The translations under genes and the position numbers were made by a program. The notes below the pieces were generated by a model. It was not told where the DNA came from and made no database searches. It was given only the letters and a program-made list of their open reading frames with translations. Below, in pieces: positions 26,116-32,004 of a stretch of DNA of 64,000 nucleotides. Position 1 is the stretch's first letter. Every line of letters starts with the position of its first letter. The DNA comes from Leptolyngbya ohadii IS1 (GTDB lineage Bacteria; Cyanobacteriota; Cyanobacteriia; Elainellales; Elainellaceae): positions 3,067,080-3,131,079 of the forward strand of contig NZ_NKFP01000006.1 of assembly GCF_002215035.1 (NCBI RefSeq). Reading direction: 5' to 3'.

Positions 26116-26652
26116 CTATTGGGTCTGTTCCTCATCCAGCAGCGTCCCTTCAAGATTTGCGCCTTCCAAATTTGCGCCGCTCAGGTTTGCCTGGTGCAGG
26201 TCGGCTTCATGCAGATTGGCTTGAGTCAGATCGGCGATCGCCAGATCCGCCCCAGTGAGGTCGGCATGGTCGAGGTTCGCAGCACTGAGATTGGCTTCAT
26301 GCAGATTGGCATCGCACAGGTTCGTCGCAGTCATATTAGCAACGGTCATTTCGGCGTGGCTCAGGTCAGCATGGTCGAGCAGTGCGCCATCTAAAATTGC
26401 CCCGTCCAGAATCGCGCCGTTTAAGTTTGCGCCTCGCAAATCGGCATTCCTCAAGGTCGCGCCATTGAGATCAGCATGGTTCAGACTGGCACGGCTGAGG
26501 TTTGCTCCAGACAAATTGGCTCCGTCCAGAATTGCCCGATCGAACACCGCGTCTTGCAGGTCGGCAGATTCCAAATTGGCTTCACTCAAATCCATTCCTG
26601 TAAAGTCTCGATCGCCCGCACGATAGCGCATCAGGAGTTCATCTACGGTCAT
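26116..26652 (-). CDS. Pentapeptide-repeat protein
   Basis: A 178-residue protein made almost entirely of A(D/N)LXX pentapeptides, from about residue 18 (DFTGMDLSEANLESADL) to about 172. This gives some 29 to 30 repeats, which fold as a right-handed beta helix. No signal peptide or membrane helix is seen. Such proteins are numerous in cyanobacteria and mostly of unknown role; a few mimic DNA and inhibit gyrase. Near-identical repeat codons on the opposite strand give long apparent frames, which are not genes. Confidence 0.85.
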   Translation of the reverse strand: MTVDELLMRYRAGDRDFTGMDLSEANLESADLQDAVFDRAILDGANLSGANLSRASLNHADLNGATLRNADLRGANLNGAILDGAILDGALLDHADLSHAEMTVANMTATNLCDANLHEANLSAANLDHADLTGADLAIADLTQANLHEADLHQANLSGANLEGANLEGTLLDEEQTQ

Positions 26653-28770: not shown

Positions 28771-28874
28771 TTAATGCCGTCACTGGGCGTATTGTATATC
28801 CACCTTAATCGTTCACGGCGAATCCCTTCCTCCTTCAGGGGACAGTTCCCCCGCCGTCTATTGGTTGAGTTGCT

Positions 28875-29432
28875 CTAATCCGATCGACGACGATTTTGCG
28901 CTCGTATCTGCCGACGCTCTGTAAACCAGTTCTGCAACTGCTGACGGCAAGTTTGCTCCCGAATCCCGCCAATCACCGGAAGCCGATGAAACGAGCAGGC
29001 GCTATCGGGCAAATTGGCAACTGTCCGAACTGCCCCCGTTTTTGGGTCGTCTGCTCCGTACACCAGCAAGCCCAAACGCGATTGGACGATCGCCCCCGCA
29101 CACATGGGACAGGGTTCTAGCGTCACGTACAGCACACAGGACTCCAGATGCCACGAACCCAAGTGCTGACCCGCCTGCCGCAGTGCCAAAATTTCTGCGT
29201 GAGCCGTCGGATCGCAGTCCCGCTCTTTCCGATTCTCCCCCGTCGCAATAATTCGATCGCCCTGAAGAATGACCGCACCGACCGGAATTTCTCCTGCTTC
29301 TCCGGCAGATTGGGCAAGGGCGATCGAATTATTGCGACGGGGGAGAATCGGAAAGAGCGGGACTGCGATCCGACGGCTCACGCAGAAATTTTGGCACTGC
29401 GGCAGGCGGGTCAGCACTTGGGTTCGTGGCAT
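28875..29432 (-). CDS. tadA: tRNA adenosine(34) deaminase TadA, chimeric N-terminus (copy 1)
   Basis: TadA converts adenosine 34 to inosine in tRNA-Arg and is usually essential. From residue 37 the sequence is canonical: IALAQSAGEAGEIPVGAVIL, catalytic HAE (78-80) and zinc PCPMCAGA (Cys108, Cys111). The first 36 residues (MPRTQVLTRL...) are not TadA sequence. They are read from the opposite strand of the duplicated gene because the inverted repeat replaces the natural 5' end. The usual first 10-20 residues of TadA are therefore missing. The deaminase core is complete and might work if translated. If this locus is real, it is the only near-complete TadA here. Confidence 0.75.
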   Translation of the reverse strand: MPRTQVLTRLPQCQNFCVSRRIAVPLFPILPRRNNSIALAQSAGEAGEIPVGAVILQGDRIIATGENRKERDCDPTAHAEILALRQAGQHLGSWHLESCVLYVTLEPCPMCAGAIVQSRLGLLVYGADDPKTGAVRTVANLPDSACSFHRLPVIGGIREQTCRQQLQNWFTERRQIRAQNRRRSD

Positions 29433-29705
29433 CTGGAGTCCTGTGTGCTGTACGTGACGCTAGAACCCTGTCCCATGTGTGCGGGGGCGATCGTCCAATC
29501 GCGTTTGGGCTTGCTGGTGTACGGAGCAGACGACCCAAAAACGGGGGCAGTTCGGACAGTTGCCAATTTGCCCGATAGCGCCTGCTCGTTTCATCGGCTT
29601 CCGGTGATTGGCGGGATTCGGGAGCAAACTTGCCGTCAGCAGTTGCAGAACTGGTTTACAGAGCGTCGGCAGATACGAGCGCAAAATCGTCGTCGATCGG
29701 ATTAG
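29148..29705 (+). pseudogene. tadA: Second, inverted tadA copy lacking the N-terminal core
   Basis: Residues from GDRIIATGENRKERD to the end are identical to copy 1. The segment that should read AQSAGEAGEIPVGAVIL is replaced by KNDRTDRNFSCFSGRLG, the antisense of the same bases in the 53-bp spacer. This removes the first helix and first strand of the deaminase fold, so the product should not fold properly. It overlaps copy 1 head to head. Confidence 0.75.
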
Positions 29706-29721
29706 AGCAACTCAACCAATA

Positions 29722-30164
29722 GAGACGATCGCTACATCGCCCCAACTGTCCTGGATTCCGTAAATCTGGACTCTCCGCTGATGCAGGAAGAAATCTTTGG
29801 TCCGCTGCTCCCCGTGATTGAGTATGGGGACATCCAAGAGGCGATCGATCTGATTCTGTCGAAGCCCAAGCCCCTTGCCCTCTACCTCTTCTCCCGCAAT
29901 TCCCAGCTTCAGCAGCGCATCCTGCAAGAAACCTCATCCGGCGGCGTCTGCCTCAACGAAACGGTCATGCACGTCGGCGTTGCCCAACTGCCCTTTGGTG
30001 GCGTCGGCGAAAGCGGCATCGGCAAATATCACGGCAAAGCCAGCTTCGACACCTTCTCCCACTACAAGAGCGTCCTCGCAAAACCCTTCTGGCTCGATTT
30101 GCCCTGGCGGTACGCGCCGTATGAGGGGAAGTTGGAGCAGATTAAGAAGTTGTTGAAGAAGTGA
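29722..30164 (+). pseudogene. Inverted 3' fragment of the aldehyde dehydrogenase gene
   Basis: The fragment reads RDDRYIAPTVLDSVNL through MQEEIFGPLLPVIEYGD to the end KKLLKK, identical to the last 146 or so residues of the full gene on the other strand. It lacks the NAD-binding domain and catalytic Cys. An internal ATG at 29781 would give 127 residues, but no function is expected. Confidence 0.85.
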
Positions 30165-30221
30165 GGGGAGTAGGGAGTGGATGGGTGGATGGGTGGATGA
30201 GTAGATGAGTGGGTGAGTGGG
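30165..30221. repeat. STRR-type tandem repeats (left copy)
   Basis: Units of GGATGGGT and GAGTGGGT type follow GGGGAGTAGGGAGT. They are mirrored by the complementary array at about 30390-30476, because both belong to the arms of inverted duplication B. Confidence 0.75.
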
Positions 30222-30476
30222 TGATCTTTTGAGCTGTGTTTAATGAAAACGCTGGTTTTAGGATAATTTCTCTATCAGAAAAGTCCTATTTATCAGAAGC
30301 GCAGGGTATGTAGCCCTTGTTAGCAAACCCGACCGCTTCGCACAACTGCCATAGGCGGATCACTCACCCTCTCAAACTCCTATACATTCACCATCTACCC
30401 ACCCATCCACTCACTCTCCCCCACTCACCCACTCATCTACTCATCCACCCATCCACCCATCCACTCCCTACTCCCC

Positions 30477-31883
30477 TCACTTCTTCAACAACTTCTTAAT
30501 CTGCTCCAACTTCCCCTCATACGGCGCGTACCGCCAGGGCAAATCGAGCCAGAAGGGTTTTGCGAGGACGCTCTTGTAGTGGGAGAAGGTGTCGAAGCTG
30601 GCTTTGCCGTGATATTTGCCGATGCCGCTTTCGCCGACGCCACCAAAGGGCAGTTGGGCAACGCCGACGTGCATGACCGTTTCGTTGAGGCAGACGCCGC
30701 CGGATGAGGTTTCTTGCAGGATGCGCTGCTGAAGCTGGGAATTGCGGGAGAAGAGGTAGAGGGCAAGGGGCTTGGGCTTCGACAGAATCAGATCGATCGC
30801 CTCTTGGATGTCCCCATACTCAATCACGGGGAGCAGCGGACCAAAGATTTCTTCCTGCATCAGCGGAGAGTCCAGATTTACGGAATCCAGGACAGTTGGG
30901 GCGATGTAGCGATCGTCTCTATTGGTTTGACCGCCCAGAATTGCCTGACCACCCTGCATCAGGTGAACCAGTCGTTCGTAGTGCCGATCGCTAATGATGC
31001 GTCCGTAGTCGGGACTGTTCGCCGGATCTTCTCCGTAGAGTTCGCGCAGGGTGGCGGTGATTGCCTCGATCACCTGGGGCTTGATGCGGCGATCGACCAG
31101 CAGATAATCGGGGGCGATGCAGGTTTGTCCGGCGTTGATAAATTTGCCCCAGACGATGCGCTTGACGGCTGTTTGTAGATCAATATCGGTATCCACAATG
31201 CAGGGACTCTTGCCGCCCAGTTCCAGGGTGACGGGCGTGAGATGCTTTGCTGCCGCAGACATCACAATTTTGCCGATCGCCGTGCCGCCTGTGAAAAAGA
31301 TGTGGTCAAACTTTTCGTTCAAGACTGCCTGACTCACATCCACTCCCCCTTCGATCGCGGCAATGTATTGGGGGTCAAAGGTGGTTTCGATGAGATCAGC
31401 CACGACCCGCGAGGTATGGGACGCCACTTCCGAGGGCTTTACTAAGGCGCAGTTTCCGGCGGCGATCGCGCCCACCAGGGGAGAAATCACCAGCTGAAAC
31501 GGATAGTTCCAGGGACCAATAATTAGCACTACGCCCAGCGGTTCCGGAACAATCTGTGCCTTTGCCGGAAACTGTTCGGGAGGCGTTCCGACGCTCTTGG
31601 GCTTCATCCAGCGACGCAGATTTTTGATTGCCGCATCAATTTCCTGCACGACGCCCATTTCAAAGAATGCCTCGAAGTCGGGCTTCCTCAGGTCTGCCTG
31701 AACTGCCTGCATGATTGCCGCTTCCCGGTCTAAAACTGCCTGCCGCAGTCGCTTAAGCTGTTCCAGCCGAAACTCGATCGATCGCGTTGCCCCCGATCGG
31801 AAGTAGACCCGCTGCCGCTGGGCAATATCCTCGATCTTGGTCTGAATTGCGCTTGCTTCAGAATTCACCGCAAACTGCACCAT
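30477..31883 (-). CDS. Aldehyde dehydrogenase (class 3 / fatty aldehyde type)
   Basis: This 468-residue enzyme oxidises an aldehyde to the acid with NAD(P). IGPWNYPFQL, the catalytic Glu in TLELGGKSPCI and nucleophile Cys in NAGQTCIAPD are present, with EEIFGPLLPV near the end. The short length and absence of an N-terminal extension match class 3-type enzymes; cyanobacterial relatives oxidise fatty and apocarotenoid aldehydes. I chose ATG 31883 because AGGAGGTC lies seven bases before it; an upstream ATG 20 codons earlier has a poor context. The last 450 bp are duplicated in inverted orientation at 29.72-30.16 kb. Confidence 0.9.
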   Translation of the reverse strand: MVQFAVNSEASAIQTKIEDIAQRQRVYFRSGATRSIEFRLEQLKRLRQAVLDREAAIMQAVQADLRKPDFEAFFEMGVVQEIDAAIKNLRRWMKPKSVGTPPEQFPAKAQIVPEPLGVVLIIGPWNYPFQLVISPLVGAIAAGNCALVKPSEVASHTSRVVADLIETTFDPQYIAAIEGGVDVSQAVLNEKFDHIFFTGGTAIGKIVMSAAAKHLTPVTLELGGKSPCIVDTDIDLQTAVKRIVWGKFINAGQTCIAPDYLLVDRRIKPQVIEAITATLRELYGEDPANSPDYGRIISDRHYERLVHLMQGGQAILGGQTNRDDRYIAPTVLDSVNLDSPLMQEEIFGPLLPVIEYGDIQEAIDLILSKPKPLALYLFSRNSQLQQRILQETSSGGVCLNETVMHVGVAQLPFGGVGESGIGKYHGKASFDTFSHYKSVLAKPFWLDLPWRYAPYEGKLEQIKKLLKK

Positions 31884-32004
31884 CGGAAGCGACCTCCTGC
31901 ACTCTCTTTCCTCTACCCTAAAGTCTTCGTAACAAATCGACAAGATTTTAGGAACGATCGATCGAACTGAGGTAGCTTAACTTGAGTTATTCGCTAGTTC
32001 CGCC

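What the first reader, a model, noticed from the sequence alone, without database searches (positions are those of the whole stretch)
28857..30927. Two abutting inverted duplications with microhomology at every junction
Seen: arms of 407 bp (spacer 53 bp) and 508 bp (spacer 198 bp) that appear identical. Junction 1 is at a HIP1-like CGATCGCCCT palindrome in tadA. Junction 2 is the shared word AACCAATAGA (29714-29723), which occurs both downstream of tadA and inside the aldehyde dehydrogenase gene. Junction 3 is in a GGGTGAGTGGG repeat. Known: serial template switching produces this pattern. Inference: a recent replication-based rearrangement, with HIP1 and STRR words as switch points, or a chimeric assembly.
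Basis: partly seen in the sequence, partly recalled or inferred. Interest (0 to 1): 0.7.

Follow-up and report, generated by a model that had tools for sequence, protein, structure and literature searches.

The report
Fold-back gap-filling artefact at tadA
The two mirror-image duplications are really written in this cyanobacterial sequence, but similar fold-backs recur in the genome with a telltale 10-letter overlap at many joins, so they are most likely a genome-assembly error that swallowed the start of one gene and a whole neighbouring gene.

Summary
In detail: two abutting inverted duplications (407-bp arms, 53-bp spacer; 508-bp perfect arms, 198-bp spacer) share exactly 10 nt, AACCAATAGA, at 29714-29723. 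The same-genus genome G001 has a plain tadA-grxC-ALDH locus. In the window the tadA 5' end and the tadA-linked grxC are missing, replaced by inverted copies of the two flanks.

It is not a single event. In 2.0 Mb of this 7.9-Mb genome I found 25 clusters of perfect fold-back repeats; in 0.4 Mb of three relatives, none. Where fold-backs abut, the overlap is exactly 10 nt at 7 of 18 junctions, seven different words. Ten nucleotides is the default merge threshold of the gap closer GapFiller. In 3 of 5 other clusters queried, flanks are colinear in G001 and the interval between them is replaced by inverted flank copies. HIP1-like words are no commoner at junctions than in chance-shared words.

Verdict: most likely a gap-filling artefact (0.78; any artefact about 0.9). 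Raw reads, which I could not see, would settle it.

The parts
28857..29263 (-). Left flank, tadA 3' part (arm 1a)
   Evidence: homologous to G001 tadA
29264..29316 (-). Spacer 1: further genuine-looking tadA sequence, no inverted copy
   Evidence: BLAST homology to G001 runs to 29306
29317..29723 (+). Inverted copy of the left flank (arm 1b), begins with AGGGCGATCG, the complement of CGATCGCCCT
29714..29723 (.). 10-nt overlap AACCAATAGA where the two inverted copies meet; read here as the merge point of two extensions
29714..30224 (+). Inverted copy of the ALDH 3' end and downstream STRR (arm 2b)
30225..30416 (.). Spacer 2 beside STRR-type repeats
30417..30927 (-). Right flank: ALDH 3' end and downstream STRR (arm 2a)
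28875..29432 (-). Chimeric tadA ORF, 185 aa: N-terminus read from the antisense copy
   Evidence: (147.6 bits, model positions 13-160 of 165, cut-off 150)
29148..29705 (+). Second chimeric tadA ORF in the inverted copy, 185 aa
   Evidence: 121.6 bits, model positions 34-160
30477..31943 (-). Aldehyde dehydrogenase ORF, 488 aa, apparently intact

Best explanation
A gap-closing artefact of genome assembly. The true locus is most likely tadA-grxC-ALDH on the - strand, as in G001. The scaffold had a gap between the tadA 5' part and the ALDH 3' end. A gap closer grew both edges; each extension turned back onto the reverse complement of its own flank (left at a CGATCG word in tadA, right inside STRR-type repeats), and the gap was declared closed when the two extensions shared 10 nt (AACCAATAGA). 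Shown: the arms, the interval absent relative to G001, the recurrence in the assembly, the mode of 10 nt, and the equality of that number with a published default. Inferred: the program used, the position of the original gap, and why reverse-strand sequence was in the read pool (wrongly oriented or chimeric pairs).
For: G001 has tadA-grx-ALDH with 629 bp between the homology ends where the window has 1170. The G001 interval finds no tadA 5' end elsewhere in G000, and the only strong glutaredoxin found elsewhere is the orthologue of another G001 gene (92% to G001:C44). 25 clusters of perfect fold-backs in 2.0 Mb, 21 with a segment of 100 nt or more, against 0 in 0.4 Mb of G001, G003 and G008. 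Overlap exactly 10 nt at 7 of 18 junctions, with seven different words; two more become 10 with mismatch-tolerant arms and one more by BLAST ends. GapFiller extends from both edges one nucleotide at a time and closes on an overlap of 'at least 10 nucleotides' by default. In 3 of 5 other clusters queried the flanks are colinear in G001 and inverted flank copies stand in the interval. Perfect palindromes with no spacer reach 1444 bp.
Against: 11 of 18 overlaps are not 10 nt (2, 2, 3, 3, 4, 5, 9, 11, 13, 16, 29). With GapFiller's default 29-nt extension overlap and its gap-length check a walk should not turn at a 10-nt word, so chimeric reads, looser settings or another program are needed. The assembly method and reads are unknown to me. 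The genome is rated 100% complete in 8 contigs. One queried cluster had no match in G001 and one had flanks about 90 kb apart there. No N run marks the locus.
Confidence: 0.78

Rival explanations
1. Chimeric molecules rather than the gap closer: phi29 whole-genome amplification (MDA) or library fold-back reads joined strands to their own complement, and the assembler kept them where coverage was poor.
For: 406 of 475 MDA chimeras were inverted, typically with an intervening deletion, and most junctions used 2-21 nt of complementarity (PMC1855051, passages). That resembles the geometry here, and such reads could also supply the turns in the gap-closing model.
Against: MDA complementarity is spread over 2-21 nt, not concentrated at 10 (7 of 18). 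A near-complete 7.9-Mb assembly in 8 contigs is unusual for amplified DNA (general knowledge). Two fold-backs at one locus need several chimeric events kept in one consensus.
Confidence: 0.13
2. A real rearrangement: a break in the tadA-grxC-ALDH interval whose two ends folded back, were copied, and were joined at a 10-nt microhomology (serial template switching, or hairpin-capped ends followed by a deletion).
For: The geometry of this one locus fits: each flank is followed by its own inverse and the inverses meet at a 10-nt word. The chimeric tadA keeps an open frame and most of the TadA model. tadA is listed as non-essential in some bacteria (PMC10027721, passages).
Against: 25 clusters in 2.0 Mb, none in 0.4 Mb of relatives, a mode of exactly 10 nt with unrelated words, palindromes of up to 1444 bp without spacer, and loss of conserved gene parts here and, as I read it, at L146.
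Confidence: 0.06

Closest known systems
False gap closure by paired-read edge extension (GapFiller, Boetzer and Pirovano 2012, PMC3446322)
   Same: Extension from both edges and merging at an overlap whose default minimum is 10 nt (passages); the commonest overlap here is 10 nt.
   Different: The passages seen do not describe fold-back fills, and the default 29-nt extension overlap does not by itself explain the turns.
MDA chimeras (Lasken and Stockwell, PMC1855051; author names recalled)
   Same: Inverted joins with an intervening deletion and short complementarity (passages).
   Different: No fixed overlap length; each chimera is a single molecule, not a consensus.
Tandem inversion duplication / serial template switching (TID, FoSTeS/MMBIR)
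   Same: Inverted copies, short spacers, junction microhomology.
   Different: A TID has one continuous inverted copy between two direct copies (recalled). Here two inverted pieces are joined and the middle of the locus is lost. Only search listings and abstract starts were seen.

Membership tests
Gap-closing assembly artefact | Recurs in this assembly and not in related assemblies | tested here: met
   25 clusters in 2.0 Mb of G000; 0 in 0.4 Mb of three relatives; 1 of 115 other-genome loci with arms of 40 nt or more, a 41-nt one
Gap-closing assembly artefact | Junction overlaps sit at an algorithm's threshold | tested here: met
   10 nt is the mode, 7 of 18; the other 11 range from 2 to 29; default n = 10
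Gap-closing assembly artefact | Sequence present in relatives is missing at the join | tested here: met
   tadA 5' end and grxC here; 3 of 5 other clusters colinear with inverted copies in the interval
Gap-closing assembly artefact | No reads span the junctions | not testable with these tools
   no reads held
Template-switch rearrangement (TID/MMBIR) | Junctions present in the organism's DNA | not testable with these tools
   needs reads or PCR
Template-switch rearrangement at HIP1 words | Junction words enriched in HIP1-like CGATCG | tested here: not met
   3 of 18 overlap words against 538 of 1995 chance-shared 10-mers; 4 of 14 palindrome centres against 26 of 51 natural 10-nt palindromes
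Template-switch rearrangement at STRR | Turn points enriched in STRR | not tested
   STRR seen at the turn here and in L146; not counted
MDA chimera | Complementarity spread over 2-21 nt | tested here: inconclusive
   overlaps range 2-29 nt but peak at 10; the distribution in the paper's figure was not seen

The most novel reading that the evidence does not exclude
The cell really carries dozens of perfect fold-back duplications, made by an unknown end-joining process that folds both ends of a break back on themselves and joins them at about 10 nt of identity, remodelling genes such as tadA.
Probability: 0.03. Interest if true: 0.9.

Novelty: not a real feature. Interest (0 to 1): 0.12.

Why it matters
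Anyone using this genome would annotate two chimeric tadA genes, miss a glutaredoxin gene and count many false long palindromes. A pile-up of junction overlaps at exactly 10 nt is a cheap test for false gap closure and could flag deposited assemblies before perfect inverted repeats or microhomology-mediated rearrangements are counted in them. As biology the locus is probably ordinary.

Tried and rejected
Considered and set aside: a tandem duplication followed by inversion; two hairpin-capped ends followed by a 10-nt deletion; a TID. The first two fit the geometry of this locus, but not its recurrence with a mode of 10 nt. Considered: grxC moved elsewhere. The candidate at C4:953421-953675 is 92% identical to a different G001 gene (G001:C44) and 67% to the tadA-linked one, so it is the paralogue. 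Considered: HIP1 as the switch; not enriched.

Led nowhere: the genome-contig scan did not return the window's own record; its best hit was 66% identical. Cluster L186 had no match in G001. The listings of four literature searches showed me no paper on fold-back fills with a 10-nt overlap; I opened passages of PMC3446322, PMC7111523 and PMC5596377 only. No structure was predicted.

Caveats on counts: clusters are perfect inverted matches of 40 nt or more within 2.5 kb; four of the 25 have no segment of 100 nt and may be natural hairpins, as may some others. In one search overlaps above 30 nt were left out, and one place is counted twice (10 and 16 nt at C6:605598). One search lists more rows because it splits palindromes at their centres; its row count was not used. 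The scanned 2.0 Mb includes 5668 N. The DNA search for the tadA 5' end could miss a diverged stretch of under 90 nt.

Full report
What is there. The window contains two abutting inverted duplications: 28857-29263/29317-29723 (407 nt, spacer 53) and 29714-30224/30417-30927 (511 nt, 99.8% by BLAST; perfect core 508 nt with spacer 198). They overlap by AACCAATAGA (29714-29723), the only 10-mer the two arms share. The order is: tadA 3' part, inverted tadA, inverted ALDH 3' end, spacer, ALDH.

What should be there. The window is G000:C6:3067080-3131079 of a 7.9-Mb, 8-contig genome. In the same-genus genome G001 the order is tadA (181 aa), glutaredoxin 3 (TIGR02181, 120.9 bits) and ALDH on one strand, with 629 bp between the ends of BLAST homology where the window has 1170. 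In G002, G006 and G014 a Grx3 also lies between the tadA and ALDH matches; in G003 and G008 it does not, so the linkage holds in 4 of the 6 relatives searched. G005 and G023 have tadA and ALDH matches at similar spacing; the list was cut, so I give no total. In the window the tadA start and about 20 codons are gone. The chimeric ORF takes its N-terminus from the antisense copy and scores 147.6 bits against the TadA model (cut-off 150; G001 scores 169.9). A DNA search with the G001 interval found no tadA 5' end elsewhere in G000, and apart from the two copies here the TadA-model hits in G000 score 53 bits or less. The one strong glutaredoxin elsewhere, C4:953421-953675, is 92% identical to G001:C44 and 67% to the tadA-linked G001 gene. 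All 6 relatives searched carry two strong Grx3 matches, and one search found only this one strong match in G000, so G000 appears to lack the tadA-linked gene.

It recurs. I scanned 2.0 Mb of G000 (C6 0.2-1.4 and 3.0-3.4 Mb; 0.2 Mb each of C1 and C4), about a quarter of the genome, for perfect inverted matches of 40 nt or more within 2.5 kb: 25 clusters, 21 of them with a segment of 100 nt or more. In 0.4 Mb of three relatives (G003 0.2, G001 0.1, G008 0.1) there were none. A simpler scan of loci held at the time found arms of 40 nt or more in 1 of 115 loci from other genomes, a 41-nt one. The abutting double architecture is seen again, for example, at C6:3209654-3211118 (499- and 70-nt arms, 11-nt overlap) and C6:462540-463838, and in a triple form at C4:509525-510618. 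Perfect palindromes without spacer reach 1444 bp; long perfect palindromes are poorly tolerated in bacteria (general knowledge).

The 10-nt signature. With the strict perfect-arm rule, 18 junctions between abutting segments overlap by 30 nt or less: 10 nt in 7, and 2, 2, 3, 3, 4, 5, 9, 11, 13, 16 and 29 in the other 11. The 16-nt row starts at the same place as one of the 10-nt rows, and three of the short ones (2, 2, 3) lie in one array at C6:753-755 kb. If 10 had a one-in-ten chance per junction, 7 or more of 18 would have probability 0.0012; rows in one cluster are not independent, so this is rough. Two junctions given as 4 and 3 become 10 when mismatches in the arms are allowed (ATTCTACGAA, TGGGTGCCGC), and C6:309582-309591 is 10 by BLAST ends. 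At the finding's own first turn the word CGATCGCCCT is also 10 nt, if the base before it in the true gene is the G that G001 has there; this is inference from the codon alignment.

HIP1. CGATCG is in 3 of the 18 overlap words (a 9-, a 10- and a 29-nt one) and in 4 of the 14 palindrome centres printed. In the window, 538 of 1995 chance-shared 10-mers and 26 of 51 natural 10-nt palindromes contain it. So HIP1-like words appear at joins no more than chance-shared words would.

Mechanism. [quoted passage not shown] Chance sharing of a 10-mer is easy at these lengths: 862 of 3000 random pairs from the window. Two extensions that have wrongly run back along their own flanks can therefore be merged. 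A review notes that GapFiller needs the library's read orientation (PMC5596377, passages); wrongly oriented pairs would bring reverse-strand flank sequence into the gap pool (inference). The weak point is the turn itself: with the default 29-nt extension overlap a walk should not turn at a 10-nt word, so reads must already contain fold-backs, or other settings or another program were used. MDA or library chimeras could supply such reads: 406 of 475 MDA chimeras were inverted (PMC1855051, passages).

Other clusters against G001. Of five queried, three show both flanks colinear in G001 with inverted flank copies in the G000 interval: L146, 213 bp between matches in G001 against 557 in G000; L148, 743 against 776; L193, 398 against 606. 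One had no match and one had flanks about 90 kb apart and in opposite orientation in G001. At L146, which I read as modA/modB-like from recall without a family search, the start of the downstream gene is present in G001 and not seen in G000.

Weighing. A real double fold-back repair event fits this locus and would be a fair reading if it stood alone. The recurrence at about one cluster per 80 kb with perfect arms, the absence from the relatives scanned, the loss of conserved sequence and the mode at a software default make an artefact about nine times out of ten. The damaged tadA is only suggestive: it is essential in E. coli but listed as non-essential in some bacteria (PMC10027721, passages).

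Noticed in passing
G000 C6, C1, C4 (loci L138-L197, L218-L257): 25 clusters of perfect fold-back inverted repeats in 2.0 Mb, several with the same abutting architecture and 10-nt overlaps. The rest of the genome, about three quarters, was not scanned.
   Followed up: partly
window 30177-30222 and 30417-30463: STRR-type G/T-rich repeats beside ALDH; the 2.4-kb locus gave 111 matches in the genome, most of them to this repeat.
   Followed up: no
L144:13037-13492 (G000:C6:3133037-3133492): A nested pair of inverted repeats, 144-nt palindrome inside 83-nt arms, 13-nt overlap; it could be natural or another artefact.
   Followed up: no
L255:3200-5700 (G000 C6 near 1344 kb): Flanks of a 628-bp palindrome map about 90 kb apart in G001, so this may be a false scaffold join or a real rearrangement.
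   Followed up: no
G001, G002, G003, G006, G008, G014: All six relatives searched have two strong Grx3 matches; in four of them one lies between tadA and ALDH.
   Followed up: partly
window 26116-26652: A 178-aa ORF with repeated A(N/D)L-type motifs, by eye a pentapeptide-repeat protein (no family search).
   Followed up: no
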